Positions 2 through 35,099 of a DNA stretch of 64,000 bases are shown in pieces; positions within the stretch are counted from its first letter, which is position 1, and every line of letters starts with the position of its first letter. Source of the stretch: Ilex aquifolium. Its lineage: Eukaryota; Streptophyta; Magnoliopsida; Aquifoliales; Aquifoliaceae. The translations under genes were made by a program, and so were the position numbers. The stretch lies in the NCBI GenBank assembly GCA_951799425.1, contig OX637391.1, positions 24,786,551-24,850,550 of the forward strand, read 5' to 3'. The notes under the pieces were generated by a model, which was given only the letters and a program-made list of their open reading frames with translations, had not been told where the DNA came from and searched no databases.

Positions 2-338
2 TGTTGCATATGGGGAAGGGACGAACAAAACCAATTAGTCAGACAACCCTTAGGCCCCAACATAAACATCAACCAAGACCCACCCGAGGATCTGGGTGAT
101 AATTTTGAGAATGTCGGTCCAAATCCAAACGTTCAAGGGGGAGGGGGATTGCAACCACCTAGAATGCCCAACCCACGAGTGCAATTTCCTCCTCCTATGA
201 ATGAGGGGAATAACATTCCAATGGATCCTCCGGCAAGGTCTATGAGGGATTTCCTTCAACCAACTCGTAGCACCACACCCTCATGTGTCTTCCTCCCAGT
301 CCAAGCTCAGCTTTTCCAAGTTAAGCCAGGGATGTTGC
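2..338 (+). pseudogene. B gag, N-terminal fragment
   Basis: The frame is open from base 2 to 338, with proline- and asparagine-rich sequence followed by a stretch (about 239-300) that resembles the start of gag in elements A and C: an RDFLQPTR segment, then PSC. It ends abruptly where element A begins. Across A the frame resumes at 13980 with the segment LQLLPTFHG, the same order seen in A's and C's gag. The start codon is outside the window. Gag would form the virus-like particle. The fragment is not a gene by itself. Confidence 0.8.
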
Positions 339-2273
339 TGATTAGCACTTAAAATTAGCATTTTACTATGCCGTTTTAAGACTAATTGTACTTTGATGGA
401 GTTTAAGTGATGTCATTTCAGGCCCTAAACTGAACAAGGACCCAAGAACAACAAGTACCACACTTGGATGCAACACCAGCACATTAGAGCCCAAAATTGG
501 AGAAGCTTGGAGCACAGCCAGAACGTTCGAACGCTTTCTCACGGTTGAACGTCCACATTACACTGTAGCAGACTCAACTGCTAAGAGAAGGCGTGTTGCA
601 GTTAGGAAAGAAGACTGAAGCTCTGAAGCACTTGAGTGTCACGTTCGAACGCCAACTCACGTTCGAACGTGCACTTGAGTTGATTGAAGACCAGACTACT
701 GCATAGAGTTGGAACTGAACTTCACAGAAGACCAACAGACCACTCGAGTGAAAGGGTCAAAACACATCTGGCGTTCGAACGCCCTTAGTGCAAAAACAGA
801 AGAAACGTTCGAACGACAGTCAACGTTCGAAAGCCCTAAGTACAAAAACAGAAACAACGTTCGAACGCCAACTCACGTTCGAACGTTCTCCACAGACTGG
901 CAGCAGAGTGGTTGGCTTTTCACTTGGACTTGGGCGGCAAACACTATTCATTCACCTCCTCTTGTCTCCTCCTCTTGCCTATAAATACTCCCCTTGTTGG
1001 AGAGCTAACGAAGCGAAGTAGAAAAGTTGATGGAGGCTTAGACTCCCACTCACATTGTAGATTTAGCTTATTTTCTTTGTATGAAGTCTTTATCTTAGAG
1101 ATTAGTTTGGCTATAGTCCAACATCTCTTGCTTGTTATAAAAGTAGTTTTATGCTTATGCTTTCATTTTACATGCATAGAAGAGAGATAGTTCATCTTTT
1201 GGTTGAGAAAGCAACCCTCCAATTCTTGGTTGAGGAAGCCACCCTCCAAATGTGACTAGCTTTCTTCTACTTTTATTGTTCATGCATTTCACTTCCATTG
1301 TTTGAGCTTCTTTCTTTCTTAGAAGAGTGAAACTCTTCCACTTTTCTAGAGCTTTACCAAAGTCGTGAAGGGTGGAACGTGATTCACCCATTATTTGTTA
1401 AAGATTGGCTCCGTGTTTGTTGTTACTTTATCTTTTAAGTTCTCTACTTGGAGGGATGAGCATCACTCACTTTTCTAGCTTTACCCAAGCCATGAAGAGT
1501 GAGTAGTTTCTCATTCACTCTTTAGTAAGAGGAGAAGGGCATGTATAAGTTATCCGGGAATCATATTTGTGCATTGTTTTTATGCTTAACGTTTATTTCT
1601 TCTTGTTATTGGATGAGTGATTGCATCTAGCAAATCTAAGGTACTTTGTATAACTGTGGGCTCTTTCTATGACATGGATGACTCTTGCATAGAAAGACTC
1701 ATCAGTTCAAGGCAAGTACCCCGGCTAGATCCTCATGACTACCGTTCAATCCTCCCCCTTATTGTACTTCATTTAAAGAATGGAATATTAATATCATGAT
1801 TGGATGTCTTGTAGAAACACTTGCTTGTTTGTAGACGGGTTAAGTCTCGGCACAGGCAATTCTTGTAAACTTCTAGAAAGACATCGGAATCATGTTCTTA
1901 ATTCTCACAATCCATCTTTATCTTTCGATTAACTTGCTGTTGACATGGGAGTTAATTGAGTTATCAAGCACAATTATGACAAACCAGATAACTAACTACA
2001 TGTCCAGATCCTTGCACTAAAGAGTGACTCTTTTTAATTAGCACTTATCTCCTGTTTTGTTAAGAAAATCCTCTGGGAAAGAATCTTATATTATGTCCAG
2101 GAAAACTCATATCTCACAACAAATCTCAAGGGTTACAATCAATAGGTCTCTACCAGTACTTACCTCAGAAATATCAACAAAATTTCCCTGTGGATTCGAC
2201 TCCGGACTCAAACCGGATTATTACAACAGCTTGACCGCCTGCACTTGGGTGTACACATTTCGGATCAAGAACA
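339..2273 (+). repeat. 5' LTR of element A
   Basis: The LTR is 1935 bp, TG...CA. It matches 12033-13979 along its length. It holds a palindrome array (524-885), a TATA box (980-987), a CT-rich leader and a 60-codon open frame (1617-1799) also present in the other LTRs of the family. The end is fixed by the target duplication seen after the 3' copy. Confidence 0.95.
524..988 (+). promoter_or_regulatory. LTR promoter of A: TTCGAA palindrome array plus TATA box
   Basis: Copies of the 10-bp palindrome CGTTCGAACG lie at 524, 642, 660, 772, 806, 858 and 876, with a one-base variant pair (CGTTCGAAAG) at 824. Paired copies are separated by 8 bp (18 bp centre to centre). About 95 bp downstream of the last copy is TATAAATA (980-987). 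Each full palindrome holds three CpGs. The binding factor is unknown. A promoter role is inferred from position upstream of the TATA box in a U3-like region. Confidence 0.7.
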
Positions 2274-2279
2274 AGTTTT

Positions 2280-2297
2280 TGCCGCCGTTGTCGGGGA
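2280..2297 (+). other. Primer binding site of A (tRNA-Asp type)
   Basis: Six bases after the 5' LTR lies TGCCGCCGTTGTCGGGGA. It matches the complement of the plant tRNA-Asp 3' end (TGGCGCCGTTGCCGGGGA) at 16 of 18 positions. This tRNA is the one reported for Athila elements. Confidence 0.85.
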
Positions 2298-2392
2298 ACC
2301 TTTAAAAGGTGTTTTAAGGTGAAAGGTAAAAAGACCTTCAACGTTGTGTATATTCTTTGGTTTACTGTAAATAACTTTGTTTTATTTTCTTT

Positions 2393-5300
2393 ATGACTGA
2401 GGGCACTCCTCGCTTCCAAAATTTGCCGGAAGAATCGTGTGAGTCCATGAATCAGCCTGAACCAAATTCACCTAGATTAGTAGCAGACTCTTGTGAGGGT
2501 AGTATGGCAAATAATGAAAGAAATGGAGAAGTCCCTATGAGAGAGGAGGAGGTCCCTAACATCCGAACTTTGCGGGATTACTTAAATCCCACACGAAACA
2601 GTGTCCCCTCTTGTTTTATTTTTCCTGAAAATGCTCCCATCTTTACTGTAAAGCTGGGGACAGTGCAGTTATTGTCCGTGTTTCATGGATTGGATGCAGA
2701 AAATCCATATCTGCATATAAAAGATTTTGAGGAAGTGTGTGGAACATTTCAAGACAATTCTGAATTGGCCAAGATGAAACTGTTTTCTTTCTCCTTGAGG
2801 GATAGAGCCAAACAATGGTTAAATTCTTTAAAAGCTTTTTCAATACCCAACTGGAAAGCATTACAAAATGAATTTTTTAGAAATTTTTTTCCTCTACACC
2901 GCACAAATGCACCGAAAAGGCAAATCATGAATTTTGCGGTTAAAGAAGGAGAAACTATTTATCAAAGTTGGGAGAGATTCAAAGATCTGCTTCAATCCTG
3001 CCCACATCATGCTTTTGAAAATTGGACTTTGGTAGGATTTTTCTATGACTCCTTACCCTCTAGACTACGTCAGTTTGTCGAAATGATGGCCCAAGGAGAA
3101 TTCATGGGAAAAAGTCCGGAGGAGGCATTCAATTTTTTCGACACCATATCTAACAGTTCTCAGATGTGGGACTCAGCCTCCCCTACCACTGTAGAAGCCA
3201 GACCATCTACTTCCCAAGGAGGAAAATATGTCTTGAGAGAGGATGATGACTTGAGAGCAAAAATGTCCACATTGTCTCGAAAGCTTGAAGCTTTTGAGAT
3301 GAAGAAAGTCCATCAAGTTGATGTTAGCCCTTCCACCGAGCAAGTGGGTGGAATCTGTGCGCTAACAGGACACCATACTGGGGAGTGTCCCACCATCCCA
3401 GCATTCAAAGAAGTCTTGTTGGAACAAACACATGCAGTTTCCAACTTCAACAAGCCCTACTCCAACCCATATTCTGAAACATACAATCCAGGGTGGCGAA
3501 ACCACCCTAACTTCAGTTGGAAGAACACACAACCAATACCCATGAACCAACAACAAGGGTCATACCCACCACCCCAAGGACCTCCTGCATATCAACCATA
3601 TCAACCACCACAAAAGAGGAACCTTGAGGACACACTGAATCAGTTCATGCAAAGCCAAATGAATTATAACAATAATTCCACACAGGCTTTCACTGATTTC
3701 AAAACCCAGACCACTCAATCTTTTGAGGATCTTAAAAGCCACATCCAAAAGTTGACTTAATCCATGGTCATACACGAAAAGGGCAAGTTTCCTGCCCAAC
3801 CAAAGCAACCACAAGGCCAATTCCATGTAGGGAACCCTTCAACAACAGGAAACACCCAAGACCAAGTTGTCACGACACTAAGAAGTGGCAAGGTGATTGA
3901 CAAGACAATCAGAGACATACTCATTCCCAAGCCAAGACCTGAGTCAAGCCCAGCCAATCCATCATCTGAACCTGAACCAATTGAGACTGAACTTGAGAAA
4001 GACCCTGAGCCTGTGATTGAACAAGAGCCAGAACCTTCTGAGAAAAGGGAACCTTCGTATCCCATTCCGGCTCCGTTTCCTCATCGACTCAAAACCAAAC
4101 AGAAAGTGAAAAATCAGCCTAAAATTTATGAGCTTTCTAAGCAAGTAAATATCAACATCCCACTTCTGGATGCAATCAAACAAGTTCCGTCTTATGCCAA
4201 GTTTCTAAAAGACTTGTGCACAGTCAAGAGAAGCCAGAATGTCCAAAAGAGAGCTTTCCTAACGGAACAAGCTAGTGCTCTTCTTCAACATAAAACCCTT
4301 CCAAAATACAAAGACCCAGGGTGTCCGACTGTCTCATGTATCATTGAGAACTTCAGGATTGAACAAGCTTTGTTAGACCTTGGAGCCAACGTTAATTTGC
4401 TACCCTACTCTGTCTATCAGCAGTTGGGTTTGGGTGAACTTAAACCCACTTGTATCACACTCCAGTTGGTCGACAGATCTGTCAAAACCCCCAGAGGGAT
4501 TGTTGAAGATGTGCTTGTCCAAGTAGATAGTTTTGTCTTCCCTGTTGACTTCATTGTTCTGGATACTCAACCAGCAATAAATTCGGAGAACCAAATTCCC
4601 GTCATTCTTGGTCGGCCATTCCTAGCAACTTCCAATGCCTTAATCAATTGCAGGAATGGAGTCATGAAATTAACTTTTGGGAATATGACTCTCGAACTGA
4701 ACATTTTCAATATTGCTAAACATCCAGGAGAAGAAAAGGAAGAAAGGGAAGTAAACTCCATAGAATCTTTGATACAGGAACATCTGGATGATACATTCTG
4801 TGAGGATCCTACTGAATCATCTCTGTTAGAACTCATCTCATCAGAAACAACAGATGATGACCCAAATCCACCAAGTGGCCCTACTCATACTGTTGAGACA
4901 TGGGCACCCAAATTTGAAGAAATTTCACCGAGTGACACAAAGCCAGTCTCATCAAGTGTTAGCCCACCAAAGCCTGAATTGAAACCTCTCCCATCTGACC
5001 TCAAATATGCATTTTTAGGAGAGAATGAGTCATACCCAGTGGTAATTTCATCTAAACTCACAGACTTACAAGAGTCTAAACTGATTGAAGTTCTTCGAAG
5101 TCATAAAAGCACCATCGGATGGACCATCGCTGACTTGAAAGGTATAAGCCCGTTAATCTGCAATCATGCCATATACCTTGAAGAGGATTCAAAACCCTCT
5201 CGTCAAATGCAGCGATGACTAAACCCTCACATGAAGGAAGTTGTGAGAATTGAGGTACTCAAACTCTTAGATGCAGGGATAATCTTCCCTATCTCAGATA

Positions 5301-7952
5301 GTAAATGGGTTAGTCCAACCCAAGTTGTGCCAAAAAAATCTGGGGTCACAGTGGTCAAAAATAATGCAAATGAACTAGTACCAACTCGAGTCGTCACAGG
5401 ATGACGAATGTGCATTGATTATCGAAAACTCAATTTGGTCACTAGAAAAGATCATTTTCCTCTCCCATTTCTTGACCAAGTCCTAGAGAGAATTGTAGGC
5501 CATGCATTTTATTATTTTTTTTAGATGGGTATTCAGGGTATAACCAAATTGAGATAGCCCTAGATGATCAAGAGAAAACAACCTTCACATGCCCCTTTGG
5601 CTCTTTTGCATTCAAAAGGATGTCATTTGGACTTTGTAACGCTCCTGCAACATTCCAAAGATGTATGCTAAGCTTGTTTAGTGATATGGTTGAAAATTTT
5701 TTGGAAGTATTCATGGATGACTTCTCTTTCTATGGTGATTCCTTCGATTTGTGTTTAACCAATCTGGAGAAAGTACTGATCAGATGTAAGGAAGCCAACC
5801 TAGTGCTCAATTGGGAAAAATGCCATTTTATGGTAACACATGGCATTGTCCTTGGTCACATTGTGTCGTCTGAAGGCATGAAAGTTGACAAGGCAAAAAT
5901 AGATCTGATTGGAAATTTGCCTGCCCCTAAGACTGTAAAGGATGTTCGATCATTCCTAAGACATGCAGGTTTCTACAGGAGATTCATAAAAGATTTCAGT
6001 ACCATAGCAAAACCCATGTTTCACCTCCTAAGTCAGGATGTAATCTTTGATTGGAATGAAGCATGCCAAAAAGCCTTTGACAAGCTAAAAGACATGTTAA
6101 TTTCTGCACCAATAATGCAACCCCCTGACTGGAATCTTCCCTTTGAACTAATGTGTGATGCAAGTGATTTTGCTGTAGGTGCTGTATTGGGACAAAGAAA
6201 AGATAAGAAACCCCATGTGATTTACTATGCAAGCAAAACTTTGAATGATGTTCAAATGAATTATTCAACAACTGAGAAAGAATTGATTGCTGTAGTTTTT
6301 GCACGGGAAAAATTCCGTTCTTATCTTGTTGGTTCTTCTGTTACTGTATTCACTGACCATGCAGCCCTAAAATTTTTGCTCACAAAGAAGCACGTCAAAC
6401 TAAGACTCTTGAGATGGATACTTTTGCTCCAAGAGTTTGATCTTGTCATCAAGGACAAGAAATGTGTCGAGAATGTGGTGGCAGATCATCTGTCCAGACT
6501 AACCTATGAATTTCATGAGGATGGACTGCCAATCAATGAGAAATTCCCTGATGAACAACTGTTCATGATTGATAGGACACCATGGTATGCAGACATTGCT
6601 AACTTTCTTGCTGCTGGTACACTCCCTCCATCCTTTACCATGTTGGACAAAAAGAAATTTCTGAGGGAGGTTCGTAACTTCTTTTGGGAGGATCCTTACG
6701 TATTCAAGTACTGTAAAGATCAAATCATAAGACGTTGCATCCCTGCTCATGAAAGTAGCCAGGTAATAACATTTTGTCATTCTGAAGCATGCGGTGGCCA
6801 CTTTTCATCAAGAAAAACAGCTGCAAAAATATTGCAGTGTGGATTTTACTGGCCTACACTTTTCAAAGATGTCCATGCCTTTTGTTTAACTTGTGATAGG
6901 TGTCAAAGGTTGGGAAACATTTCTAAAAGAAATATGATGCCCTTAAACCCCATTCTGGTAATTAAAATTTTTGACTGTTGGGGCATCGATTTTATGGGAC
7001 CATTTCCCCCTTCCTTTGGCTATCTGTACATTTTAGTGGCTGTAGACTATGTGTCCAAATGGGTTGAAGCAATTCCATGCCGAAACAATGATCACAAAAC
7101 AGTGATCAAATTTTTGAAATAAAATATTTTGTCCCGGTTTGGAATTCCGAAATCAATCATAAGCGATGGGGGTGCTCATTTTTGCAATCGTCCTTTCTAG
7201 AATTTAATGAAAAAATACTTGATTTTTCACAAAATTGCAACCCCTTATCACCCACAGACCAGTGGACAAGCTGAGTTAGCTAATCGGGAGATCAAATTAA
7301 TTTTGGAAAAAATGGTGAATCCAGATCGCAAAGATTGGTCGTTAAGACTAAATGATGCGCTCTGGGCATACCGTACTACTTTTAAAACAATTTTAGGCAT
7401 GTCTCCTTATCGATTAGTCTATGGAAAGCCATGTCACTTGCTTGTGGAATTGGAACATAGGGCATACTGGCCATTAAAGCAATGAATTTTGACTTGGACA
7501 AGGCTGGGCTAGCAAGGAAACTTCAGATAAATGAATTGGAGGAATTGAGAAATGAAGCATATGAAAATGCTAAGATTGCTAAAATCAGGATGAAAATTCT
7601 TCATGACAAACACATTGTGCAGAAATCTTTTGAGCCGTCTCAAAAAGTCTTGCTATTTAATTCAAGACTCCGCCTCTTTCCTGGTAAGTTGAAATCAAGA
7701 TGGACTGGGCCTTACATTGTCAAAAAGGTGTTTGAACATGGAGCAGTTGAAGTGGAAAACCTAGCAAACGGTAATAGTTTTACTGTTAATGGTCAGCGGT
7801 TAAAACCATTTTTGGAGGATGTTGTTAAAAATGTGGAAACCATTCTTTTAATGGAACCAGAGTACTCCACCGAAATTCGTGTCTGCCGACACTCCAGTGG
7901 ATCGGGTCAGGAAAAATCTACTCCAACTCGACCCACTGGGGCGCCTTTATAA
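2393..7952 (+). pseudogene. Gag-pol polyprotein of element A, inactivated
   Basis: The order is gag (from 2393), a protease with a DLGA active site near 4378, reverse transcriptase with FMDD at 5710-5721, RNase H (segment MCDASD near 6151), and integrase with a HHCC finger near 6780-6910 and the D-D-E core. Relative to C it is broken by stops at 3758 (CAA to TAA), 5216 (CGA to TGA), 5402 (TGG to TGA), 7120 and 7198, by a 2-bp insertion in a T run near 5511-5522 and by a 1-bp loss near 7470. The gag part up to 3757 is open for 455 codons. These breaks rule out a complete polyprotein, so A could move only with proteins from another copy. Confidence 0.93.
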
Positions 7953-8334: not shown

Positions 8335-8376
8335 AACATTGGGGACAATGTTCAGTTTAGGTTGGGGGGTATGATC
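8335..8376 (+). promoter_or_regulatory. Conserved hairpin and internal polypurine-like tract (A)
   Basis: AACATTG-GGGA-CAATGTT (8335-8352) forms a 7-bp stem with a 4-base loop. Nine bases on is GGTTGGGGGGTATGAT (8361-8376), almost the same as the true polypurine tract and LTR start at 12021-12036. C and B keep both parts at the same place after pol. It could prime extra plus-strand synthesis or act in RNA; neither is shown. Confidence 0.6.
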
Positions 8377-8557
8377 AGTTCATCAGTTCATTAGTTCATA
8401 TTTTCGTAAATTTTTAAAATTTTTTATATTGTCGTTGTTGATCATGCTTGAACATTGATTGTATAAATTGCTGATTATGCTTATGAATCAGCTTCAATCG
8501 TCTTTGTGACTGGCAGACGTTAAAGAATGAGATAGTGAGTCTTAAAACTTAGCAATC

Positions 8558-8794
8558 ATGGATGTAAAACTTTTTTGGTTTAGCCTAGGAGTTCTACGTA
8601 CTTTTCCATCTGATGTACATACTATGATCATGAGAAAAGCAAGATTAGTAAGGAAGGCTGAAATCCAAGAAAAACAAGCGAAACCCCTCTGTGGCAGAAG
8701 CAGCTTTGCCAAACGCCGTCGTGCCAAAAGGCTTGGTGCCTGTAAACAGTGTGGCAGAGTGTTTCACGAAAAAAAGGTACAACCAGTGTTCTGA
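8558..8794 (+). CDS. Small basic zinc-finger-like ORF (frame 1), carlavirus CRP-like N-terminal half, element A
   Basis: The ORF has 78 codons and a favourable start context (A at -3, G at +4). Residues 46-61 read CGRSSFAKRRRAKRLG, followed by C-x2-C (residues 62 and 65) and GR. This basic patch before a zinc-binding pair is typical of the cysteine-rich nucleic-acid-binding proteins of carlaviruses and related Betaflexiviridae (Pfam Carla_C4, PF01623), several of which suppress RNA silencing. Copy C has the same ORF at 34863-35099. In 8691-8756 the three A/C differences are silent in this frame and change residues in the overlapping one. The downstream half of the family pattern lies in the next ORF, in the +1 frame. 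Homology is my reading by eye; function in the element is unknown. Confidence 0.6.
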   Translation: MDVKLFWFSLGVLRTFPSDVHTMIMRKARLVRKAEIQEKQAKPLCGRSSFAKRRRAKRLGACKQCGRVFHEKKVQPVF

Positions 8795-8969
8795 ACCAAT
8801 TTCTGGTCGCGCACTTGATCGATTAGACTGGATAGTGAATGGGCTGAGTAAGGATTACCCTGATACGTCATGCTATTCCGGTACTTTGCTTAACCGGTTT
8901 GTGAGAGAGGAAGTTGGGAGAGTTACTGGTTGTCCATTCTACACAGACACAGAGGGAGACTCAGATTAG
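8691..8969 (+). CDS. Overlapping small ORF (frame 2), carlavirus CRP-like C-terminal half, element A
   Basis: The ORF has 92 codons, overlaps the previous ORF by 104 nt in the +1 frame, and is conserved at 34996-35274. Its first 24 or so residues only shadow the basic motif. From residue 25 (FTKKR, then NQC, then a P-I-S segment and a W-I-V-N-G segment) it resembles the downstream part of carlavirus-type cysteine-rich proteins. One expected cysteine is a tyrosine in both copies. Both A and C carry the same frame break, so it predates their split or is bypassed in expression. The start codon is uncertain; this half may never be translated alone. Confidence 0.5.
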   Translation: MAEAALPNAVVPKGLVPVNSVAECFTKKRYNQCSEPISGRALDRLDWIVNGLSKDYPDTSCYSGTLLNRFVREEVGRVTGCPFYTDTEGDSD

Positions 8970-9239
8970 ATAATTTTCTGTAGGAAATGTGTACTTTTGT
9001 TGGGGGAGTGAAAGCCAAAGGTCAGAATTTGTTGTAAAAAGTGTAAAAATCTTTTTGTATAAATTCTTTTGACTGAAATGAAAATATGGGCCGAGTAAGG
9101 AATGCCCCAGAATACCAACCTGAAGCGTGGGTAGGGGCTTATCCTGAGACGACATAGGTTTTTGATTTAAAATTATGTGTTTAGCCTTCTTAGATTGTGT
9201 ACAGTGTAGTGAAGAATTGTTTTGATTTTTTTGATTCAA
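8970..9239 (+). other. Spacer between small ORFs and env promoter (A)
   Basis: The spacer is T-rich and has no open frame that I would defend. It matches 35275-35542 in C closely, so it is an inherited part of the element. Confidence 0.5.
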
Positions 9240-9509: not shown

Positions 9510-9718
9510 CCTGGTTCGTCTTCTTCATTTCAAAACCCTCCAAAACCTCTGAAAACCCGAAAAACCCTTGGAGACTCTTCACTACCCAGACCCCAAAACC
9601 CCAACCATTCTCCATTTTCACCAAAAATCAACCCTCCCAAGACATTTTCCACTTCAAGAAGATCCATTTTCACAAAGAAATCAAAGATTTCGAAACCCTC
9701 CAACTCAAAAATCGAAAA

Positions 9719-10264: not shown

Positions 10265-12032
10265 AGATATTGTAAGTTTTTGTGATTGTGATTGTGGATG
10301 AATTGAATCATTAAGGTTGATGCTAACCAATGATATCTTGAGATATGAATGGTTCAACTCCTCACTTTTATTTGTTTTAAATGCATTTGTAGATTTAGCA
10401 TAAAATTAAAATGTGATGGAACAAATGTGGATGTTAAGAATGCATGCTAGAGTAAATATGCACATGATCGGTTTGACACCTCAATTTATCAACCGAGACT
10501 TAAAACCACATTTCTTGAAAAAATTGGTATTCTCTCTATACTTAAATTGTCATATGTGCATCAATATTTGTTATTTTAAAGGTACAGGAAGATCTGACTC
10601 GAAAATGGAATTGGTATATAACCAATACCCCCTGGAAAACCCGACATACACAGTGGAGATAACAAAGAACACCAGAGTGAGTTTCGAACCTAACGATGCT
10701 TTCGAGAGACAATCGATGTTTACTCAAGTAAATTCTTTTCACTCTCAATTTTTGAATGATCTCATTAACCTTGCTTTGATTGACGCACTTAAAAGTAATC
10801 TATTGACATATCCCACAAGGAACCATCGCATACGACACATACATGTGCACATGCTTGAGAAATGATCTTAGGCCATCTTTGATATAATATTGAGCCTTAG
10901 ACCTTTCTTTGACAAAATTTATCCCTTGTTAGCCATGTTTGAGCCATCAATATATGAATTTTTATTTGATAAACCTATATGATTACCAATCCACAGGAAA
11001 ACATACTTGACATACCTTGGCTATCTAATTTTCTTACATCCTCTCTGTAATATGATACAGAAAAAGGAAAAGAAAAAGAAGCATTAGAGATTATCATCCA
11101 AGAAGAGTTGATTAGAACAATTGAAACAAAACAGAGGCAGAAAGGCAAGACAATGCCAAGAAAGAAGAAAAATGAGAAAAAAAAAATGAAAGAAAGACAT
11201 AATCTCGGGGCAAAAATATTAAAAAGCTAGAAAAAGGTGTGCTACACTACATAAATAGAGGATAGCTCTTAAACACTTTTGATGTCATTTCATTAGCCAC
11301 TGACCTCTGGCCTCATTACAACCTATGAAAAGCCCTAATTGATCTCAAGTCTGTTGCATGCATATGTCGTCAATCAAAATTGGGTATGGTAAATGGTATT
11401 ACTGTCTATTGCGTCAATATCCTTTCATGAGATTATGCCAAACATGATTTATTGCTTCCTTAAACTAGAGCTCCCTTTCTAATTGTACATGTGATCTTTC
11501 GATTGGCCATCTTCTGATCACATGATCTGTGAGAAACAAGTCACTATAATCAGAGTGAACTTTTGTTGAGGGTATACTACGTGAGGTTTGTGAAATCGAA
11601 ACTATCCATGGAAGGTGGTAAAAGGGAGTATTTGTTATATAACAATTCCTATTGCTTGAATGATCATTCCTACTGCATTGAGAATTTCAAATACCAATGT
11701 AACAAATGATAATTTTTGCATAGAATGAATACCTGTGAAATAAGGACGTGTGAGATATAAGTCAAAATTGAGAATCTGGTGTCCCAACGACTATGATGCT
11801 AATTTACTTTAATTAGCACTCTCCTATGCACATCTGTTCGACTGAAGTTTGTGGGTAGCTTCTCTGGAAACCCTCACGAGACAACACTCGTCCGCTAGGG
11901 TAAACCTAGTGGTTCAACGGCTTGTTGCATAAGCTAAATGCAACTGGGTGACCTACGAAAATGGCATTAGGAGTAGATTTTTCTCTTTTTTTTATTATTA
12001 CTAGAGACTAGCAATATTTAGGTTGGGGAGTG
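10265..12032 (+). other. Noncoding 3' module of A, ending in polypurine tract
   Basis: The module is AT-rich and has an A/G-rich tract (about 11059-11200). Homologous sequence follows env in C (37118-38837) but precedes env in B (21838-22720). A 150-codon open frame at 10413-10865 is cut to 115 codons in C and looks like chance. The module ends in GGTTGGGGAGTG (12021-12032), the plus-strand primer tract. Confidence 0.7.
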
Positions 12033-13979
12033 TGATTAGCACTTAAAATTAGCATATTACTATGCCATTTTAAGACTAATTGTACTTTGATGGAGTTTAA
12101 GTGATGTCATTTCAGGCCCTAAACTGAACAAGGACCCAAGAACAACAAGTACCACACTTGGATGCAACACCAGCACATTAGAGCCCAAAATTGGAGAAGC
12201 TTGGAGCACAGCCAGAACGTTCGAACGCCAACTCACGTTCGAACGTCCACATTACACTGTAGCAGACTCAACTGCTAAGAGAAGGCGTGTTGCAGTTAGG
12301 AAAGAAGACTGAAGCTTTGAAGCACTTGAGTGTCACGTTTGAACGCTAACTCACGTTCGAACGTGCACTTGAGTTGATTGAAGACCAGACTACTGCATAG
12401 AGTTGGAACTGAACTTCACAGAAGACCAACAGACCACTCGAGTGAAAGGGTCATAACACATCTGGCGTTCGAACTCCCTTAGTGCAAAAACAGAAGAAAC
12501 GTTCAAACGGCAGTCAACGTTTGAACGCCCTAAGTACAAAAACAGAAACAACTTTCGAACGCCAACTCACGTTCGAACGTTCTCCACAGAATGGCAGTAG
12601 AGTGGTTGGATTTTCACTTGGACTTGGGCGGCAAACACTATTCCTTCACCTCCTCTTGTCTCCTCCTCTTGCCTATAAATACTCCCCTTGTTGGAGAGCT
12701 AACGAAGCGAAGTAGGAAAGTTTATGGAGGCTTAGACTCCCACTCACATTGTAGATTTAGCTTATTTTCCTTGTATGAAGTCTTTATCTTAGAGATTAGT
12801 TTGGCTGTAGTCCAACATCTCTTGCTTGTTATAAAAGTAGTTTTATGCTTATGCTTATGCTTATGCTTTCATTTTACATGCATAGAAGAGAGATAGTTCA
12901 TCTTTTGGTTGAGGAAGCAACCCTCCAATTCTTGGTTGAGGAAGCCACCCTCCAAATGTGACTAGCTTTCTTCTACTTTTATTGTTCATGCATTTCACTT
13001 CCATTGCTTGAGCTTCTTTCTTTCTTAGAAGAATGAAACTCTTCCACTTTTCTAGAGCTTTACCAAAGCCGTGAAGGGTGGAACGTGATTCACCCATTCT
13101 TTGTTAAAGATTGGCTCCGTGTTTGTTGTTACTTTATCTTTTAAGTTCTCTACTTGGAGGGATGAGCATCACTCACTTTTCTAGCTTTACCCAAGTCATG
13201 AAGAGTAAGTAGTTTCTCATTCACTCTTTAGTAAGAGGAGAAGGGCATGTATAAGTTATCCGGGAATCATATTTGTGCATTGTTTTTATGCTTAACGTTT
13301 ATTTCTTCTTGTTATTGGATGATTGATTGCATCTAGCAATGCTAAGGTACTTTGTATAACTGTGGGCTCTTTCTATGACACGGATGACTCTTGCATAGAA
13401 AGACTCATCAGTTCAAGGCAAGTACCCCGACTAGATCCTCATGACTACCCTTCAATCCTCCTCCTTATTGTACTTCATTTAAAGAATGGAATATTAATAT
13501 CATGATTGGATGTCTTGTAGAAACACTTGCTTGTTTGTAGACGGGTTAAGTCTCGGCACAGGCAATTCTTGTAAACTTCTAGAAAGACATCGGAATCATG
13601 TTCTTAATTCTCACAATCCATCTTTATCTTTCGATTAACTTGCTGTTGACACGGGAGTTAATTGAGTTATCAAGCACAATTATGACAAACCGGATAACTA
13701 ACTACATGTCCAGATCCTTGCACTAAAGAGTGACTCTTTTTAATTAGCACTTATCTCCTGTTTTGTTAAGAAAATCCTCTTGGAAAGAATCTTATTTTCT
13801 GTCCAGGAAAACTCATATCTCACAGCAAATCTCAAGGGTTACAATCAATAGGTCTCTACCACTGCTTACCTCAGAAATATCAACAAAAGTTCCATGTGGA
13901 TTTGACTCCGGACTCAAACCGGATTATTACTACAGCTTGACCGCCTGCACTTGGGTGTACACATTTCGGATCAAGAACA
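12033..13979 (+). repeat. 3' LTR of element A
   Basis: The LTR is 1947 bp and is the partner of 339-2273. It has the same palindrome array and TATAAATA (about 12675). Several differences between the two LTRs fall inside the palindromes, as expected for methylated CpGs. It is followed by target duplication GTTGC. Confidence 0.95.
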
Positions 13980-26630: not shown

Positions 26631-28599
26631 TGATTAGTACTTAAAGTTGACATATTATTATGACATTTTAAGACTAATTGTACTTTAATGGAGTTTAAGT
26701 GATGTCATTTCAGGCCCTAAACTAAACAAGGACCCAAGAACAACAAGTACCACACTTGGATGCAGTACCAGTACATTAGAGCCCAAAATTGGAGAAGCTT
26801 GGAGCACAGCCAGAACGTTCGAACGCCAACTCACGTTCGAACGTCCACAATACACTGTAGCAGACTCAAATGCTGAAGAGAAGGCGTGTTGCAGTTAGGA
26901 AAGAAGACTGGAGCTCTGAAGTACTTGAGTGTCACGTTCGAACGCCAACTCACGTTCGAACGTGCACTTGAGTTGATGGAAGACCAGACCACTGCAGAGA
27001 GTTGGAACTGCACTTCACAGGAGACCAACAGATCACTCGAGTGAAAGGGGTCAGAGCAAATCTGGCGTTCGAACGCCCTCAGTGCAAAAATAGAAGAAAC
27101 GTTCGAACGGCAGTCAACGTTCGAACGCCCTCAGTGCAAAAACAGAAAGAACGTTCGAACGCCAACTAACGTTCGAACGTCATTCACAGACTGGCAGCAG
27201 AGTTGTTGACTGTTCACTTGGACTTGGGCGGCAAACACTATTCTTTCACCCCCCCCCCCCCCCCCCTTTCTCATCCTCTTGCCTATAAATACTCCCCTTG
27301 TTGGAGAGCTAAAGGAGCCAATCATAGTAGGAAGTAGAATAGTGATGGAGGCTTAGACTCCCACTCTCATTGTAGTTAGTTCATTTTACTTATGAAGTCT
27401 TTATTTTAGAGATTAGTTTGCCTTTAGCCCAACATCTCTTGCTTGTTATAACAGTAGTTTTATGCTTATGCTTATGTTTATGCTATCATTTCTCATGCAT
27501 AGAAGAGAAATAGCTCACATCTTGGTTGAGGAAGCAACCCTCCAATTCTTGGTTGAGGAAGCCACCCTCCAAATGTGACTAGCTTTCTTCTACTTTTATT
27601 GTTCATGCATTTCACTTCCATCGCTTGAGCCTCCTTCTTTCTTAGAAGAGTGAAACTCTTCCACTTTTCTAGAGCTTTATTAAAGTCGTGAAGGGTGGAA
27701 CGTGATTCACCCATTCTTTGTGGAAGATTAGCTCCGTGTTTGTTGTTACTTTATCTTTTAAAGTTCTCCACTTGGAGGGATGAGCATCACTCACTTTTCT
27801 AGATTTACCCAAGCCATGAAGAGTGAGTAGTTTCTCATTCACTCTTTAGTGAGAGGAGAAGGGCATGTATAAGTTATCCGGGAATCACATTTGTGCAATG
27901 TTCTCTTATGCTTAACGTTTATTTCTTCTTGTTACCGGATGATTGATTGCATCTAGCAAAGCTAAGGTACTTTGTATAATTGTGAGCTCTTTCTATGACA
28001 TGGATGACTCCTGCATAGAAAGACTCATCAGTTCAAGGCAAGTACCCTGGCTAGATCCTCATGACTACCCTTCAATCTCCCCCCTTATTGTACTTCATTT
28101 AAAGAATGGACTATTAATATCATGATTGGATGTCTTGTAGAAACACTTGCTTGTTTGTAGACGGGTTAAGTCTCGGCACAGGCAATTCTTGTAAACTTCT
28201 AGAAAGACATCGGAATCATGTTCTTAATTCTCACAATCCATCTTTATCTTCCGATTAACTTGCTGTTGACACGGGAGTTAATTGAGTTATCAAGCACAAT
28301 TATGACAAACCGGATAACTAACTACATGTCCAGATCCTTGCACTAAAGAGTGACTCTTTTTAATTAGCATTTATCTCCTATTTTGTTAAGAAAATCCTCC
28401 TGGAAAGAATCTTATATTCTGTCCCGTAAAACCCATATCTCACAGCAAATCTAAAAGGTTACAATCAAAAGGTCTCTACCACTGCTTGCCTTAGAAATAT
28501 CAACAAAAGTTCCCTGTGGATTCGACTCCGGACTCAAACCGAATTATTACTACAGCTTGACCGCCTGCACTTGGGTGTACACATTGGATCAAGCCATCA
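26631..28599 (+). repeat. 5' LTR of element C
   Basis: The LTR is 1969 bp, TGATTAGTAC...GCCATCA. The end is set by comparison with the 3' LTR and its target duplication. It holds the palindrome array, an 18-C run (27249-27266) and a TATA box. Confidence 0.95.
26816..27291 (+). promoter_or_regulatory. LTR promoter of C: palindrome array, C18 run, TATA box
   Basis: CGTTCGAACG pairs begin at 26816 and 26834 and recur to about 27178, again mostly with 8-bp spacers. C18 (27249-27266) lies 17 bp before TATAAATA (27284-27291). The 3' LTR has C13 (39456-39468) at the same spot. Confidence 0.7.
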
Positions 28600-28623: not shown

Positions 28624-28716
28624 ACCTTTGAAAGGTGCTTTAAGGTAAAAGGTAAAAAGACCTTCAACATTGTGTATATTTTGGTTTACTGTAAATAACT
28701 TTGTTTTATTTTCTTT

Positions 28717-31700
28717 ATGACTGAGGGCACTCCTCACTTCCAAAATTTGCCGGCAGAATCGTGTGAGTCCGTGAATCAGCCTGAACCTAATTCACCTAGA
28801 TCAGTAGCAGACTCTTGTGAGGGTAGTATGGCAAATAATGAAAGAAATGGAGAAGTCCCTATGAGAGAGGAGGAAGTCCCTAACATCCGAACTTTGCGGG
28901 ATTACTTGAATCCCACAAGAAATAGTGTCCCCTCTTGTTTTATTTTTCCTGAAAATGCTCCCCTCTTTACTGTAAAGCCGGGGACAGTGCAGTTATTGCC
29001 CGTGTTTCATGGATTGGATGCAGAAAATCCATATCTGCATATAAAAGATTTCGAAGAAGTGTGTGGAACATTTCAAGACAATTCTGAATTGGCCAAAATG
29101 AAATTGTTTTCTTTCTCTTTGAGGGATAGAGCCAAACAATGGTTGAATTCTTTAAAGGCTTTTTCAATACCCAATTGACAAGCATTGCAAAATGAATTTT
29201 TTAGAAATTTTTTTCCTTTACATCGCACAAATGCATTAAAAAGGCAAATCATGAATTTTGCGGTCAAAGAAGGAGAAACTTTTTATCAAAGTTGGGAGAG
29301 ATTCAAATATCTACTCCAATCTTGCCCACATCATGCTTTTGAAAATTGGACTTTGGTAGGATTTTTCTATGACTCCTTACCCTCTAGACTACGTCAGTTT
29401 GTCGAAATGATGGCCCAAGGAGAATTCATGGGAAAAAGTCCGGAGGAGGCATTCAATTTCTTCGACACCATATCTGACAGTTCTCAGATGTGGGACTCAG
29501 CCTCCCCTACCACTGTAGAAGCCAGACCATCTAATTCCCAAGGAGGAAAATATGTCTTGAGAGAGGATGATGACTTGAGAGCAAAAATGTCCACATTATC
29601 TCGAAAGCTCGAAGCTTTAGAGATGAAGAAAGTCCATCAAGTTGATGTTAGCCCTTCCACTGAGCAAGTGTGTGGAATCTGTGCGCTAACAGGACACCCT
29701 ACTGGGGAGTGTCCCACCATCCCAGCATTGAAAGAAGTCTTGTTAGAACAAACACATGCAGTTTACAACTTCAACAAGCCCTACTCCAACCCATATTCTG
29801 AAACATACAATCCAGGGTGGCGAAATCACCCTAACTTCAGTTGGAAGAACACACAACCAATACCCATGAACCAACAACAAGGGCCATACCCACCACCTCA
29901 AGGACCTCCTGCATATCAACCATACCAACCACCACAAAAGAGGAACCTTGAGGACACATTAAATCAGTTCATGCAAAGCCAAATGAATTATAACAATAAT
30001 TCCACACAGGCTTTCACTGATTTCAAAACCCAGACCACTTAATCTTTTGAGGATCTTAAAAGCCACATCCAAAAGTTGACTCAATCCATGGTCACACACG
30101 AAAAGGGAAAGTTTCCTGCCCAACCAAAGCAACCACAAGGCCAATTCCATGTAGGGAACCCTTCAACAACAGGAAACACCCAAGACCAAGCCCAAGCTGT
30201 CACGACACTAAGAAGTGACAAAGTGATTGACAAAACAATCAGAGACATACTCATTCCCAAGCCAAGACCTGAGTCAAGCCCGGCCAATCCATCATCTGAA
30301 CTTGAACCAATTGAGAAAGACCCTGAGCCTGTGATTGAACAAGAGTCAGAACCTTCTGAGAAAAAGGAACCTTCGTATCCCGTTCCGGCTCCATTTCCTC
30401 ATCGACTCAGAACCAAACAAAAAGTGAAAAATCAGCCTGAAATTTACGAGCTTTTTAAGCAAGTAAATATCAACATCCCACTTCTGGATGCAATCAAACA
30501 AGTCCCGCCTTATGCAAAGTTTCTAAAAGACTTGTGCACAGTCAAGAGAAGCCAGAAAGTCCAAAAAAGAGCTTTCCTAACGGAAGAAGCTAGTGCTCTT
30601 CTCCAACAGAAAACCCTTCCAAAATACAAAGACCCAGGGTGCCCGACTGTCTCATGTATCATTGGAAACTTCAGAATTGAACAAGCCTTGTTAGACCTTG
30701 GAGCCAGCGTTAATCTGCTACCCTACTCTGTCTATCAACAGTTGGGTTTGGGTGAACTTAAACCCACTTGTGTCACACTCCAGTTGGCTGACAGATCTGT
30801 CAAAACGCCCAGAGGGATTGTTGAAGATGTGCTTGTCCAAGTAGATAGTTTTGTCTTCCCTGTTGACTTCATTGTCCTGGATACTCAACCAGCAATAAAT
30901 TCGGAGAACCAAATTCCCGTCATTCTTGGTCGACCATTCCTAGCAACTTCCAATGCTTTAATCAATTGCAAGAATGGAGTCATGAAATTAAATTTTGGGA
31001 ATATGACTCTCGAAATGAACATTTTCAATATTGCTAAACATCCAGAAGAGGAAAAGGAAGAAAGGGAAGTAAACTCCATAGAATCTTTGATACAGGAACA
31101 TCTGGATGATACATTCTGTGAGGATCCTGCTGAATCATCTCTGTTAGAACTCATCTCATCAGAAATAACAGATGATGACCCAAATCCACCAAGTGACCCT
31201 ACTCATACTGTTGAGACCTGGGCACTCAAATTCGAAGAAATTTCACCAAGTGGCACAAAGCCAGTCTCATCAAGTGTTAGCCCACCAAAGCCTGAATTGA
31301 AACCTCTCCCATCTGACCTCAAGTATGCATTCTTAGGAGAGAATGAGTCATACCCAGTGGTAATTTCATCTAAACTCACAGACTTGCAAGAGTCTAAATT
31401 ACTTGAAGTTCTTCGAAGTCATAAAAGTACCATTGGATGGACCATCGCTGACTTGAAAGGTATAAGCCCGTTAATCTGCAATCATGCCATATACCTTGAA
31501 GAGGACTCAAAACCCTCTCGTCAAATGCAGCGACGACTGAACCCTCACATGAAGGAAGTTGTGAGAATTGAAGTACTCAAACTCTTAGATGCAGGGATAA
31601 TCTTCCCTATCTCAGATAGTAAATGGGTCAGTCCAACCCAAGTTGTGCCAAAAAAATCTGGGGTCACAGTGGTAAAAAATGATGCAAATGAACTAGTGCC

Positions 31701-34269
31701 AACTCGAGTCGTCACAGGATGGCGAATGTGCATTGATTATCGAAAACTCAATGTGGTCACTAGAAAATATCATTTTCCTCTCCCGTTTCTTGACCAAGTC
31801 CTGGAGAGAATTGCAGGCCATGCATTTTACTGTTTCCTGGATGGATATTCAGGGTATAACCAAATTGAGATAGCCCTATATGATCAGGAGAAGACAACCT
31901 TCACATGCCCCTTTGGCACCTTTGCATTCAAAAGGATGTCATTTGGACTTTGTAACGCTCCTGCAACATTCCAAAGATGTATGCTAAGCTTGTTTAGTGA
32001 TATGGTTGAAAAAATTTTGGAAGTATTTATGGATGACTTCTCTGTCTATGGTGATTCCTTCGATTTGTGTTTAACCAATCTGGAGAAAGTACTGATCAGG
32101 TGTAAGGAAGCCAACCTAGTGCTCAATTGGGAAAAATGCCATTTTATGGTAACACAGGGCATTGTTCTTGATCACATCGTGTCGTCTGAAGGCATGACAG
32201 TTGACAAGGCAAAAATTGATTTGATTGGAAATTTGCCTGCTCCTAAGACTGTAAAGGATGTTCGATCATTCCTAGGACATGCAGGGTTCTACAGGAGATT
32301 CATAAAAGATTTCAGTACCATAGCAAAACCAATGTGCCACCTCCTAAGTCAGGATGTAATATTTGATTGGAATGAAGCATGCCAAAAAGCCTTTGACAAG
32401 CTAAAAGACATGTTAATTTCTGCACCAATAATGCAACCTCCTGACTGGAATCTTCCTTTTGAACTAATGTGTGATGCAAGTGATTTTGTTGTAGGTGCTG
32501 TATTGGGACAAAGAAAATATAAGAAATCCCATGTGATTTACTATGCAAGCAAAACTTTGAATGATGCCCAAATGAATTATTCAACAACTAAGAAAGAATT
32601 GCTTGCTGTAGTTTTTGTACTGGAAATATTTCGTTCTTATCTTGTTGGTTCTTCTGTTACTGTATTCACTGACCATGCAGCTCTAAAATTTTTGCTCACA
32701 AAGAAGGACGCCAAACCAAGACTCTTGAGATGGATACTTCTGCTCCAAAAGTTTGATCTTGTCATTAAGGACAAAAAAGGCGTCGAGAATGTGGTGGCAG
32801 ATCATTTGTCCAGACTGACCTATGAATTTCATGAGGATGGACTGCCAATCAATGAAAAATTCCCCGATGAGCAACTGTTCATGATTGATAAGACACCATG
32901 GTATGCAGACATTGCTAACTTTCTTGCTACTGGTACACTCCCTCCATCTTTTACCATGTTGGACAAAAAGAAATTTCTGAGGGAGGTTCGTAACTTCTTT
33001 TGGGAGGATCCTTACGTATTCAAGTACTGTAAAGATCAAATCATAAGACGTTGCATCCCTGCTCATGAAAGTAGCCAGGTAATAACATTTTGTCATTCTG
33101 AAGCATGCGGTGGCCACTTTTCATCAAGAAAAACAGCTGCAAAAATATTGCAGTGTGGATTTTACTGGCCCACACTTTTCAAAGATGTCCCTGCCTTTTG
33201 TTTAACTTGTGATAGGTGTCAAAGGTTGGGAAACATTTCTAAAAGAAATATGATGCCCTTAAACCCCATTCTAGTAATTGAAATTTTTAACTGTTGGGGC
33301 ATCGATTTTATGGGACCATTTCCCCCTTCCTTTGGCTATCTATACATTTTAGTGGCTGTAGACTATGTATCCAAATGGGTTGAAGCAATGCCATGCCGAA
33401 ACAATGATCACAAAACAGTGATCAAATTTTTAAAAGAAAATATTTTGTCCCGGTTTGGAATTCCGAAATCAATCATAAGCGATCGGGGTGCTCATTTTTG
33501 CAATCGTCCCTTCTGGAATTTAATGAAAAAATACTTGATTTTTCACAAAATTGCAACCCCTTATCACCCACAGACCAGTGGACAAGCTGAGTTAGCTAAT
33601 CGGGAGATCAAATTAATTTTGGAAAAAACGGTGAATCCAGATCGCAAAGATTGGTCATTAAGACTAACTGATGCGATCTGGGCATACCGAACTGCTTTTA
33701 AAACAATTTTGGGCATGTCTCCTTATCGATTAGTCTATGGAAAGCCATGTCACTTGCCTGTGGAATTGGAACATAGGGCATACTGGGCCATTAAAGCAAT
33801 GAATTTTGACTTAGACAAGGCTGGGCTAACAAGGAAACTTCAGATAAATGAATTGGATGAATTGAGAAATGAAGCATATGAAAATGCTAAGATTGCTAAA
33901 ACCAGGATGAAAATCTTTCATGACAAACACATTGTGCGGAAATCTTTTGAGCCATCTCAAAAAGTCTTGCTATTCAACTCAAGACTCCGCCTCTTCCCTG
34001 GTAAGTTAAAATCAAGATGGGCTGGGCCTTACATTGTGAAAAAGGTGTTTGAACACGGAGCAGTTGAAGTGGAAAACCCAGTAAACGGTAATAATTTTAC
34101 TGTTAATGGTCAGAGGTTAAAACCATTTTTGGAGGATTTTGTTAGAAATGTGGAAACCATTCTTCTAATGGAACCAGAGTACTCCTCCGAAATTCGCGCT
34201 TGCCGACACTCCAGTGGATCGGGTCAGGAAATATCTACTCCAACCCGACCCACTGGGGCGCCGTTATAA
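28717..34269 (+). pseudogene. Gag-pol polyprotein of element C, one frame with two nonsense codons
   Basis: The single frame of about 1850 codons starts MTEGTPHFQN. Gag is about residues 1-450. Protease has DLGAS (Asp at 30694). Reverse transcriptase has FMDD at 32026-32037. RNase H has the MCDASD and [10 protein letters not shown] segments. Integrase has a HHCC finger (33090-33230) and the D-D-E triad at 33304, 33481 and 33589. Only two in-frame stops are present: TGA at 29176 (TGG in A) and TAA at 30040 (CAA in A), both in gag. From 30076 to the end the frame is open for 1397 codons. The catalytic residues are all present. As it stands it would yield a truncated gag. Confidence 0.94.
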
Positions 34270-34862: not shown

Positions 34863-35099
34863 ATGGATGTAAATCTTTTTTGGTTTAGCCTAGGAATCCT
34901 ACGTACTTTTCCACCTGATGTACATACCATGATCATGAGAAAAGTAAGATTAGTAAGGAAGGCTGAAATCAAAGAAAAACAAGCGAAACCCCTCTGTGGC
35001 AGAAGTAGCTTTGCCAAACGTCGTCGTGCAAAAAGGCTTGGTGCCTGTAAACAGTGTGGCAGATACTTTCACGAAAAAAAGGTACAACCAGTGTTCTGA
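34863..35099 (+). CDS. Small basic zinc-finger-like ORF (frame 1), carlavirus CRP-like, element C
   Basis: The ORF has 78 codons and is the counterpart of 8558-8794 with the same start context. The basic block GRSSFAKRRRAKRLG and the C-x2-C pair are unchanged from A, while the region before them has five replacements, so the motif is the best-kept part. It sits 180 bp after the internal purine-like tract and about 440 bp before the env promoter array. No promoter of its own is evident; it could be expressed from spliced or bicistronic LTR RNA. It resembles the carlavirus nucleic-acid-binding family by eye; a chance basic zinc-finger peptide is the alternative. Confidence 0.6.
   Translation: MDVNLFWFSLGILRTFPPDVHTMIMRKVRLVRKAEIKEKQAKPLCGRSSFAKRRRAKRLGACKQCGRYFHEKKVQPVF

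What the first reader, a model, noticed from the sequence alone, without database searches (positions are those of the whole stretch)
8558..8969. Carlavirus-type cysteine-rich protein-like ORFs inside an Athila retrotransposon (copy A)
Between pol and the env-like ORF lie two overlapping small ORFs. The first has a Gly-Arg-Ser, an arginine/lysine block and C-x2-C; the second, in the +1 frame, has FTKKR, a Cys, P-I-S and a W-I-V-N-G stretch. In that order this is the layout of the nucleic-acid-binding cysteine-rich protein of carlaviruses and relatives (PF01623). Several of those proteins suppress RNA silencing. I know of no report of such a gene in an LTR retrotransposon, and silencing is the main host defence against these elements. 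Seen: motifs, order, two copies. Known: family features. Inferred: capture from a virus and any role.
Basis: partly seen in the sequence, partly recalled or inferred. Interest (0 to 1): 0.92.

Follow-up and report, generated by a model that had tools for sequence, protein, structure and literature searches.

The report
Plant-virus gene carried by jumping genes
A small gene related to the nucleic-acid-binding proteins of plant RNA viruses, some of which suppress RNA silencing, sits inside an abundant plant retrotransposon family, where selection keeps it intact in most copies scored, though the two copies in this window are broken.

Summary
The first ORF of copy A (8558-8794) matches PF05515 Viral_NABP (36.1 bits, cut-off 23) and PF01623 Carla_C4 (30.7, cut-off 20.9). 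A profile of four virus proteins scores it 77 bits; the best of 500 shuffles scores 7.8. The two overlapping ORFs are halves of one broken gene: relatives hold both in one frame. In the window's own 800-Mb genome 112 of the 150 scored copies are open to at least 131 aa without a stop (counted by eye; chosen by protein similarity). Thirty open copies give dN/dS 0.21, wrong frames 1.04-1.05; integrase gives 0.24. Of 31 copies fetched, the gene lies between integrase and the env-like ORF in 22 and beside one of them in the other 9, same strand. A distant clade of mostly 182-aa proteins (Populus, Xanthoceras, Orobanche) also follows a related pol in the one context found (L001). Ten literature searches (listed in the report) showed no such gene in an LTR retrotransposon. 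Homology and selection are shown; anti-silencing function and direction of transfer are inferred.

The parts
334..338 (.). target-site duplication GTTGC, left end of element A
339..2273 (+). 5' LTR of element A
   Evidence: K2P to 3' LTR 0.0269
2375..5218 (+). gag and protease part of element A, one in-frame stop at 3758-3760
   Evidence: Retrotrans_gag, Asp_protease_2
5476..7952 (+). pol (RT, RNase H, integrase region) of element A, frame broken in places
   Evidence: DNA homology to B, where the domains were found; A's own pieces were not scanned
8343..8370 (+). polypurine-tract-like motif downstream of pol, upstream of the NABP gene
   Evidence: identical at 34650-34677, 4 mismatches at L001:2582-2609
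8558..8794 (+). NABP gene, first half (78-aa ORF): N-terminal part, basic block, C-x2-C and the His of the finger
   Evidence: PF05515 36.1 bits, PF01623 30.7 bits; virus-only profile 77 bits
8760..8969 (+). NABP gene, second half, in the +1 frame after the break: last Cys of the finger, DRLDWIVNG, acidic tail
   Evidence: aligned with the C-terminal half of intact relatives; 112.7 bits to the clade profile for the surrounding segment
9431..10264 (+). env-like ORF of element A (some 460-480 bases fewer than copy B)
   Evidence: PF20167 36 bits, under its cut-off of 45; B homologue 86.7 bits; gap seen
12021..12032 (+). polypurine tract before the 3' LTR of element A
   Evidence: position counted by eye
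12033..13979 (+). 3' LTR of element A, followed by GTTGC 13980-13984
26631..28599 (+). 5' LTR of element B (TSD AGTGA 26626-26630)
   Evidence: K2P 0.0175
28699..34269 (+). gag-pol of element B, one frame with two in-frame stops (29176-29178, 30040-30042)
34863..35099 (+). NABP first half, copy B
   Evidence: PF05515 34.9 bits, PF01623 27.8 bits
35065..35274 (+). NABP second half, copy B, +1 frame
36284..37117 (+). env-like ORF of element B
   Evidence: PF20167 86.7 bits for 36272-37114
38838..40801 (+). 3' LTR of element B, followed by AGTGA 40802-40806

Best explanation
It is an extra protein gene of an abundant Athila-type LTR retrotransposon family: a 136-aa member of the plant-virus nucleic-acid-binding protein family (PF05515, overlapping PF01623), placed between pol and the env-like ORF and held by purifying selection while the elements multiplied. 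Shown: viral homology over the first half, position, number of matching copies, selection in the reading frame. Copies A and B are broken versions of a gene whose usual form is one protein. Most likely mechanism (inferred, about 45%): the protein is made from a separate or spliced 3' mRNA, binds RNA through its basic block and C-C-H-C finger, and shields the element's RNA from host RNA silencing, as viral relatives do. Origin (inferred, about 75%): transfer from a Betaflexiviridae-like RNA virus into the element.
For: Pfam hits above curated cut-offs for ORF 1 of both copies and for 4 of 4 open genomic copies scanned, of 20 fetched by then (PF05515 38.3-41.1 bits, PF01623 28.7-29.5). Virus-only profile: 77.1 and 71.3 bits for A and B in the window's six frames; best in the reversed window 4.9; 0 of 500 shuffles of ORF 1 reach it. 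Named viral relatives: apricot vein clearing associated virus, Caucasus prunus virus, Glyptostrobus prunevirus (labelled RNA silencing suppressor by a source) and grapevine virus H. One-frame relatives. Own genome: 3772 first-look candidates, 150 scored and all 150 matched at E < 1e-40; 112 of 150 open to at least 131 aa with no stop in the match (by eye). Context: integrase part upstream in 28 of 31 fetched copies, env-like ORF downstream in 25 of 31, both in 22 of 31, same strand throughout. Selection: 20 open copies dN/dS 0.187, wrong frames 1.02 and 1.14; codons 79-136, outside the search query, 0.40 against 0.78 and 0.87; 10 more found with a distant query 0.26 against 1.15 and 0.70; all 30 0.21 against 1.05 and 1.04; integrase part in 11 gapless copies 0.24, NABP of the same copies 0.21. 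A against B: no indel in 412 bases of NABP, flanks 0.4-1.8 per 100. Viral CRPs suppress silencing (PMC3689765 and PMC12172455, passages).
Against: No expression, binding or silencing data. Copies were picked by protein similarity and for open frames, so the 0.08 of the first half and the open fraction are biased; a sample picked by flanking DNA could not be run (search busy). 8 of the 11 integrase parts carry 1-3 stops while NABP was chosen stop-free. A-against-B counts are small (21 changes; P = 0.064, or 0.036 if no stop is allowed). A group in which all four members (B, L035, L036, L037) are broken has multiplied (100/100*), so the gene is not needed in cis. The exact finger spacing is not that of any of the 4 named viruses. 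Transfer direction is unresolved.
Confidence: 0.6

Rival explanations
1. Same gene and same selection, but it serves replication rather than defence: a second nucleic-acid chaperone, packaging or RNA-export factor, or an activator of the LTR promoter.
For: Viral relatives are described as nucleic-acid-binding and, for one carlavirus, as a plant transcription factor (passage of PMC3689765; reference title in PMC12172455; that paper itself is not held). Selection alone does not tell the role.
Against: Gag of copy B already has a C-x2-C-x4-H-x4-C knuckle (seen by eye), which makes a second chaperone less needed.
Confidence: 0.35
2. The transfer went the other way, or both got it from a third source: the viral NABP gene came from plant retrotransposons.
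For: The element clades are diverse and deep, and the four virus rows lie among them in the tree without being shown to be outside.
Against: Only four named viral sequences were in the listed hits, three on long branches; the AU test does not reject the viruses being one group (p = 0.41, 39 of 130 rows used), so it speaks for neither side. NABP genes are general in the viral genera (recalled).
Confidence: 0.2
3. A passenger: a viral cDNA fragment that hitchhikes in the element without function.
For: Copies A and B and 11 others of the 150 scored are broken at the same place, and a broken group has multiplied.
Against: dN/dS 0.21 in 30 open copies with wrong frames at 1.04-1.05, as constrained as integrase; no indels; one-frame relatives down to about 60% identity.
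Confidence: 0.04
4. In copies A and B the two ORFs are both used, joined by programmed +1 frameshifting or slippage on the run of A.
For: The second half keeps a low dN/dS in its own frame in 11 broken copies (0.39; wrong frames 0.79 and 0.46); the break lies at a homopolymer.
Against: Most scored copies read straight through; broken copies are mixed with open ones, which fits recent, recurrent changes (or recurrent assembly errors); the signature is what a recent break would leave, and one wrong frame is almost as low.
Confidence: 0.04
5. Convergence on an unrelated host zinc-finger or ribosomal protein.
For: Weak PDB sequence hits to plant eL43 (best E 0.022) and one database label 'ribosomal protein L37AE/L43A'.
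Against: Rubisco scores better in the same list (E 0.01), so these are chance level; no host family reaches its Pfam cut-off; the virus-only profile matches residues outside the finger too.
Confidence: 0.01

Closest known systems
Viral_NABP proteins (PF05515; grapevine virus H, a vitivirus, is the named member met here)
   Same: G-R-S..basic block, C-C-H-C finger, D-R-L-x-W-I/V-x-x-G segment after it
   Different: Finger spacing C-x2-C-x4-H-x6-C against C-x-C-x4-H-x4-C; longer N-terminal part; encoded by an integrated retrotransposon; tail ending DSD
Prunevirus NABP (apricot vein clearing associated virus, Caucasus prunus virus)
   Same: Close in the first half: VRKLEIQEEQAKPLCG against VRKAEIQEKQAKPLCG, then the basic block and C-x2-C
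   Different: Finger C-x2-C-x12-C-x4-C; C-terminal half hardly alignable
Carlavirus CRP (PF01623)
   Same: Basic block followed by a zinc finger; above the Pfam cut-off over residues 36-69
   Different: Finger C-X2-C-X9-C-X4-C (PMC3689765 passages) is not met; shorter matched stretch
Additional ORFs (aORFs) of plant LTR retrotransposons, e.g. orchid Ty3/Gypsy AlkB domain, Tekay aORF with a predicted dsRNA-binding-like structure
   Same: Extra gene retained in a Ty3/Gypsy element, with RNA-related function shown or proposed (PMC9289625 sections 12 and 17; PMC11728184 passages)
   Different: None named in the text read is a viral NABP
Endogenous non-retroviral RNA virus sequences in plants
   Same: RNA-virus-related genes in plant chromosomes, incl. 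a Betaflexiviridae replicase-like one in cucumber (PMC3136472 passages)
   Different: Here the gene is part of a multiplying element

Membership tests
PF05515 Viral_NABP | profile score above the curated cut-off (23 bits) | tested here: met
   ORF 1 of A 36.1, of B 34.9; 4 of 4 open genomic copies scanned 38.3-41.1; L001 34.2
PF05515 Viral_NABP | match beyond the finger into the C-terminal half | tested here: met
   residues 9-105 to 9-116 of 136 in open genomic copies; not seen for the separate second half of A or B
PF01623 Carla_C4 / carlavirus CRP | profile score above the curated cut-off (20.9 bits) | tested here: met
   30.7 and 27.8 bits, but over residues 36-69 and 37-68 only; the L001 protein of the other clade stays below (19.8)
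PF01623 Carla_C4 / carlavirus CRP | zinc ligands C-X2-C-X9..12-C-X4-C | tested here: not met
   0 of 12 clade proteins; 11 of 12 have C-x2-C-x4-H-x6-C
viral NABP/CRP as silencing suppressor | suppression of RNA silencing; nucleic-acid binding | not testable with these tools
   bench assays needed
viral NABP/CRP | basic (arginine/lysine) block before the finger | tested here: met
   12 of 12 window-clade proteins, 6 of 9 of the neighbour clade, 4 of 4 viruses, 89 of 100 of the 182-aa clade
LTR retrotransposon, Ty3/Gypsy order | LTRs, 5-bp target-site duplication, order protease-RT-RNase H-integrase | tested here: met
   (domains in B)
Athila lineage | place in an RT tree of reference lineages | not tested
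gene captured from an RNA virus | element proteins nest inside rooted viral diversity | tested here: inconclusive
   four viral rows only; AU p = 0.41 for the viruses as one group

The most novel reading that the evidence does not exclude
Retrotransposon lineages of several plant families acquired an RNA-virus NABP gene at least twice, at different places behind pol (window clade downstream of the polypurine-like motif; 182-aa clade upstream of it in L001), and have kept it for anti-silencing, so that an abundant class of plant retroelements carries virus-type silencing suppressors.
Probability: 0.33. Interest if true: 0.97.

Novelty: new variant of a known kind. Interest (0 to 1): 0.88.

Why it matters
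Extra ORFs of plant LTR retrotransposons are known, but many have no known origin or function (PMC7264820, part 1 of 3 read). Here an extra ORF has a recognisable family with tested activities in viruses, a dN/dS as low as integrase, and 3772 first-look candidate places in one genome, of which 150 were scored and matched. If the intact protein suppresses silencing, it gives a direct, testable answer to how such elements keep multiplying under small-RNA silencing, and shows a trade route of genes between RNA viruses and retroelements.

Tried and rejected
Led nowhere: seven scans of viral contigs and the first of two scans of genome contigs found no encoding locus. The PDB sequence search gave chance-level hits only. 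Structure prediction was never available, so no fold comparison exists. The flanking-DNA search of the own genome was busy at every try.

Considered and rejected: host zinc finger or ribosomal protein; the in-frame stops in gag-pol as recoding sites (they lie at different places in A and B); PF01623 in a sorghum glyoxalase paper as a plant NABP gene (there it labels HAGH_C, so probably a slip for another accession, passage); one break inherited by A and B from a common broken ancestor with no later change (the flanking tree mixes broken and open copies).

Mistakes corrected: the first dN/dS of broken copies was wrong because the start was misplaced in L036 (which also missed L033) and in L033 and L036; one search leaves those two out (11 of 13 used). 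Rows dropped before counts: three short fragments P0013, P0018, P0019; 4 of 14 fetched copies outside the length window of 126-164 aa (L048, L049, L054, L056); 9 of 20 copies without a gapless integrase part; the second test of tree topology used 39 of 130 rows.

Full report
What is there. Elements A (339-13979) and B (26631-40801) are LTR retrotransposons with target-site duplications GTTGC and AGTGA and LTR-LTR distances (K2P) of 0.0269 and 0.0175. Pol of B has the order protease, RT, RNase H, integrase, and both carry an env-like ORF matching PF20167 (B above its cut-off, A below). Between pol and the env-like ORF lie the two ORFs of the finding.

Identity. ORF 1 of A scores 36.1 bits with PF05515 Viral_NABP (cut-off 23) and 30.7 with PF01623 Carla_C4 (cut-off 20.9); B scores 34.9 and 27.8. 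No other family reaches its cut-off. ORF 2 alone has no Pfam hit. A profile from three pruneviruses and one vitivirus gives ORF 1 of A 77.1 bits (best of 500 shuffles 7.8) and the second half 9.9 bits (best of 500 shuffles 5.4). With the three pruneviruses alone the second half scores 5.7 and 1 of 500 shuffles does as well; with the 182-aa clade 1.4, and 8 of 500 do. So the viral tie of the second half rests mainly on intact relatives. The protein search with ORF 1 returned 8 of 9 candidates at E <= 1, all 112-136 aa with both domains listed. A search with alignment A2 returned 22 proteins, including apricot vein clearing associated virus and grapevine virus H. A third, with A5, returned 654 at E <= 0.01, of which 120 were listed.

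One gene, broken. In relatives of 112-148 aa the sequence of ORF 1 runs on in the same frame into that of ORF 2. In A and B the frame changes shortly after the His of the finger, at a run of A. The 78-aa product lacks the last zinc ligand and the C-terminal half, and ORF 2 has no ATG.

The family in its own genome. The window lies in an 800-Mb genome held as G000. ORF 1 as query gave 3772 first-look candidates, of which only the best 150 were scored; all 150 matched. By eye, 13 have the 82-aa frame of A and B (these two included), 4 have 79, 15 have 90-94, 3 have 108-118, and 115 have 131 or more, three of these with a stop in the match. A search with the distant P0038 gave a best E of 1.5e-6 at 36% identity, so no close 182-type copy; by eye, 132 of its 150 scored places are open to at least 128 aa without a stop. 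The 14 of these that I fetched belong to the window clade; the others were not checked one by one. Both samples are chosen by protein similarity, so these fractions are likely too high. I fetched 20 open copies and the other 11 with the 82-aa frame (31 of the 150). The integrase part is upstream in 28 of 31, the env-like ORF downstream in 25 of 31, both in 22 of 31, at least one in all 31, always on the same strand, with usual offsets of about -2.15 and +1.43 kb.

Selection. Twenty open copies: dN/dS 0.187, wrong frames 1.02 and 1.14. First 74 codons 0.082 (inside the search query, so biased); codons 79-136 0.40 with wrong frames at 0.78 and 0.87. Of 14 copies fetched from the list (taken at steps down the list, short frames included), 10 were within the length window: 0.26, wrong frames 1.15 and 0.70; first 74 codons 0.17, the rest 0.45. 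All 30: 0.214, wrong frames 1.05 and 1.04. Integrase part in the 11 of 20 copies where it is gapless: 0.241, wrong frames 0.82 and 1.02; 8 of these 11 carry 1-3 stops there. NABP of the same copies, chosen as open: 0.213. A against B: gag-pol 0.20 (wrong frames 0.97 and 1.13), NABP 0.36 on 21 changes, P = 0.064 in a random-substitution null, 0.036 if no stop is allowed. The 412 bases show no indel, the flanks 0.4-1.8 per 100 bases; divergence 0.051, gag-pol 0.039-0.048, flanks 0.065-0.189. Eleven broken copies keep 0.25 and 0.39 in the two halves; one wrong frame of the second half is also low, 0.46.

The break. On flanking DNA the 13 broken and 20 open copies are mixed: 8 changes, at least 5 forced by starred branches; 34 of 500 shuffles of the label are as low, so there is at most mild clustering, and the count does not tell gain from loss of the open frame. 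A sits in a group of five with three open copies (L011, L016, L017) and one broken (L031). B, L035, L036 and L037 form an all-broken group (100/100*). So changes recur at the same place, and one broken line has multiplied, probably helped by intact relatives (inferred). Repeated assembly errors at the homopolymer cannot be excluded for the scattered cases.

Elsewhere. The tree of 127 of 130 proteins (bootstrap not settled) shows the window clade (14 rows), a clade of 9 proteins of 97-133 aa, the four viruses, and a clade of 100 proteins (92-218 aa, median 181) that includes Populus alba, Populus x canadensis, Xanthoceras sorbifolium and Orobanche hederae. One DNA context for that clade was found: L001, a 3330-base plant-like contig in a bacterial MAG record, with an integrase-bearing pol end 72.7% identical to B pol, followed by the NABP gene at 1799-2347 (PF05515 34.2 bits, PF01623 19.8, below its cut-off). 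There the polypurine-like motif lies after the gene; in the window it lies before it. This suggests separate entries or a move, on one example. The protein tree cannot settle it: in 39 chosen rows, holding the four viruses together costs 2.58 log units, p-AU 0.41. The finger also differs by clade: C-x2-C-x4-H-x6-C in 11 of 12 of the window clade, C-x2-C-x4-C-x3-C in 95 of 100 of the 182-aa clade, C-x2-C-x9..12-C-x4-C in 3 of 4 viruses, and C-x-C-x4-H-x4-C in the vitivirus.

How it most likely works. The protein has the parts by which viral NABP/CRP proteins act. Potato virus H CRP suppresses local silencing (PMC3689765, passages). A mandarivirus CRP suppresses silencing triggered by single-stranded RNA, and the finger of another is needed for cell death (PMC12172455, passages). 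Prunevirus entries in the search are labelled RNA silencing suppressor by a source. I infer that the intact element protein binds element RNA or small RNAs and weakens host silencing (about 45%); the main rival is a role in replication, packaging or transcription (about 35%). Nothing here tests function. An acceptor-like TGGCAG about 41 bases before the ATG, shared by A and B, and an A at -3 with G at +4 would fit expression from a spliced 3' mRNA (by eye); splicing of a plant env-like message is reported for Bagy2 (PMC7264820, part 1 of 3 read).

Literature. Ten searches of the open library listed no paper whose title or abstract opening reports a viral NABP gene in an LTR retrotransposon; four listings showed fewer papers than matched. 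A screen of 121 angiosperm genomes for extra domains in LTR retrotransposons names none in the sections read (PMC9289625, sections 12 and 17; supplement not seen). The first third of a review of additional ORFs (PMC7264820) and passages of PMC11963269 and PMC11728184 do not mention one. Endogenous flexivirus replicase-like sequence is known in cucumber (PMC3136472, passages). Most subscription papers are not in the library.

Verdict. Observation confirmed; interpretation right in kind and corrected in detail: one gene rather than two, closer to Viral_NABP than to the carlavirus type, a gene of a numerous family rather than of two copies, under selection, and present in at least two distinct forms among plants. 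Direction of transfer and function remain open.

Noticed in passing
8343-8370, 34650-34677; L001:2582-2609: A conserved motif resembling the 3' polypurine tract (TTTAGGTTGGGG) behind pol; before the NABP gene in the window, after it in L001. Possibly a central polypurine tract.
   Followed up: partly
14323-24714: A third Athila-like element (pol about 66% identical to B) with an env-like ORF but no NABP match by profile search.
   Followed up: partly
8510-8516 and the same place in B: Splice-acceptor-like CTGGCAG, shared by A and B, shortly before the NABP start codon.
   Followed up: no
3758-3760; 29176-29178; 30040-30042: In-frame stops in otherwise open gag-pol of A and B, at different places in the two copies; the changes look like C-to-T or G-to-A, as methylation decay would give.
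   Followed up: partly
L033, L036: Two broken genomic copies have also lost the NABP start codon.
   Followed up: no
protein hits P0011 and P0013: An intact NABP and a shortened NABP are both listed with a longest contig of 2941 bases; perhaps one contig with two NABP copies.
   Followed up: no
L001 (DAIEQH010000041.1): Plant-like retrotransposon contig binned into a Candidatus Nomurabacteria MAG: apparent contamination in a public genome record.
   Followed up: partly
18518-20200 and 25030-26630: Inverted duplicate segments 93-98% identical, origin not worked out.
   Followed up: no
58124-58548, 56267-59462: Tandem and direct repeats beside a gag-like ORF at 56898-58001.
   Followed up: no
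51343-53271: A long PPR-repeat protein ORF (642 aa), apparently a host gene.
   Followed up: no
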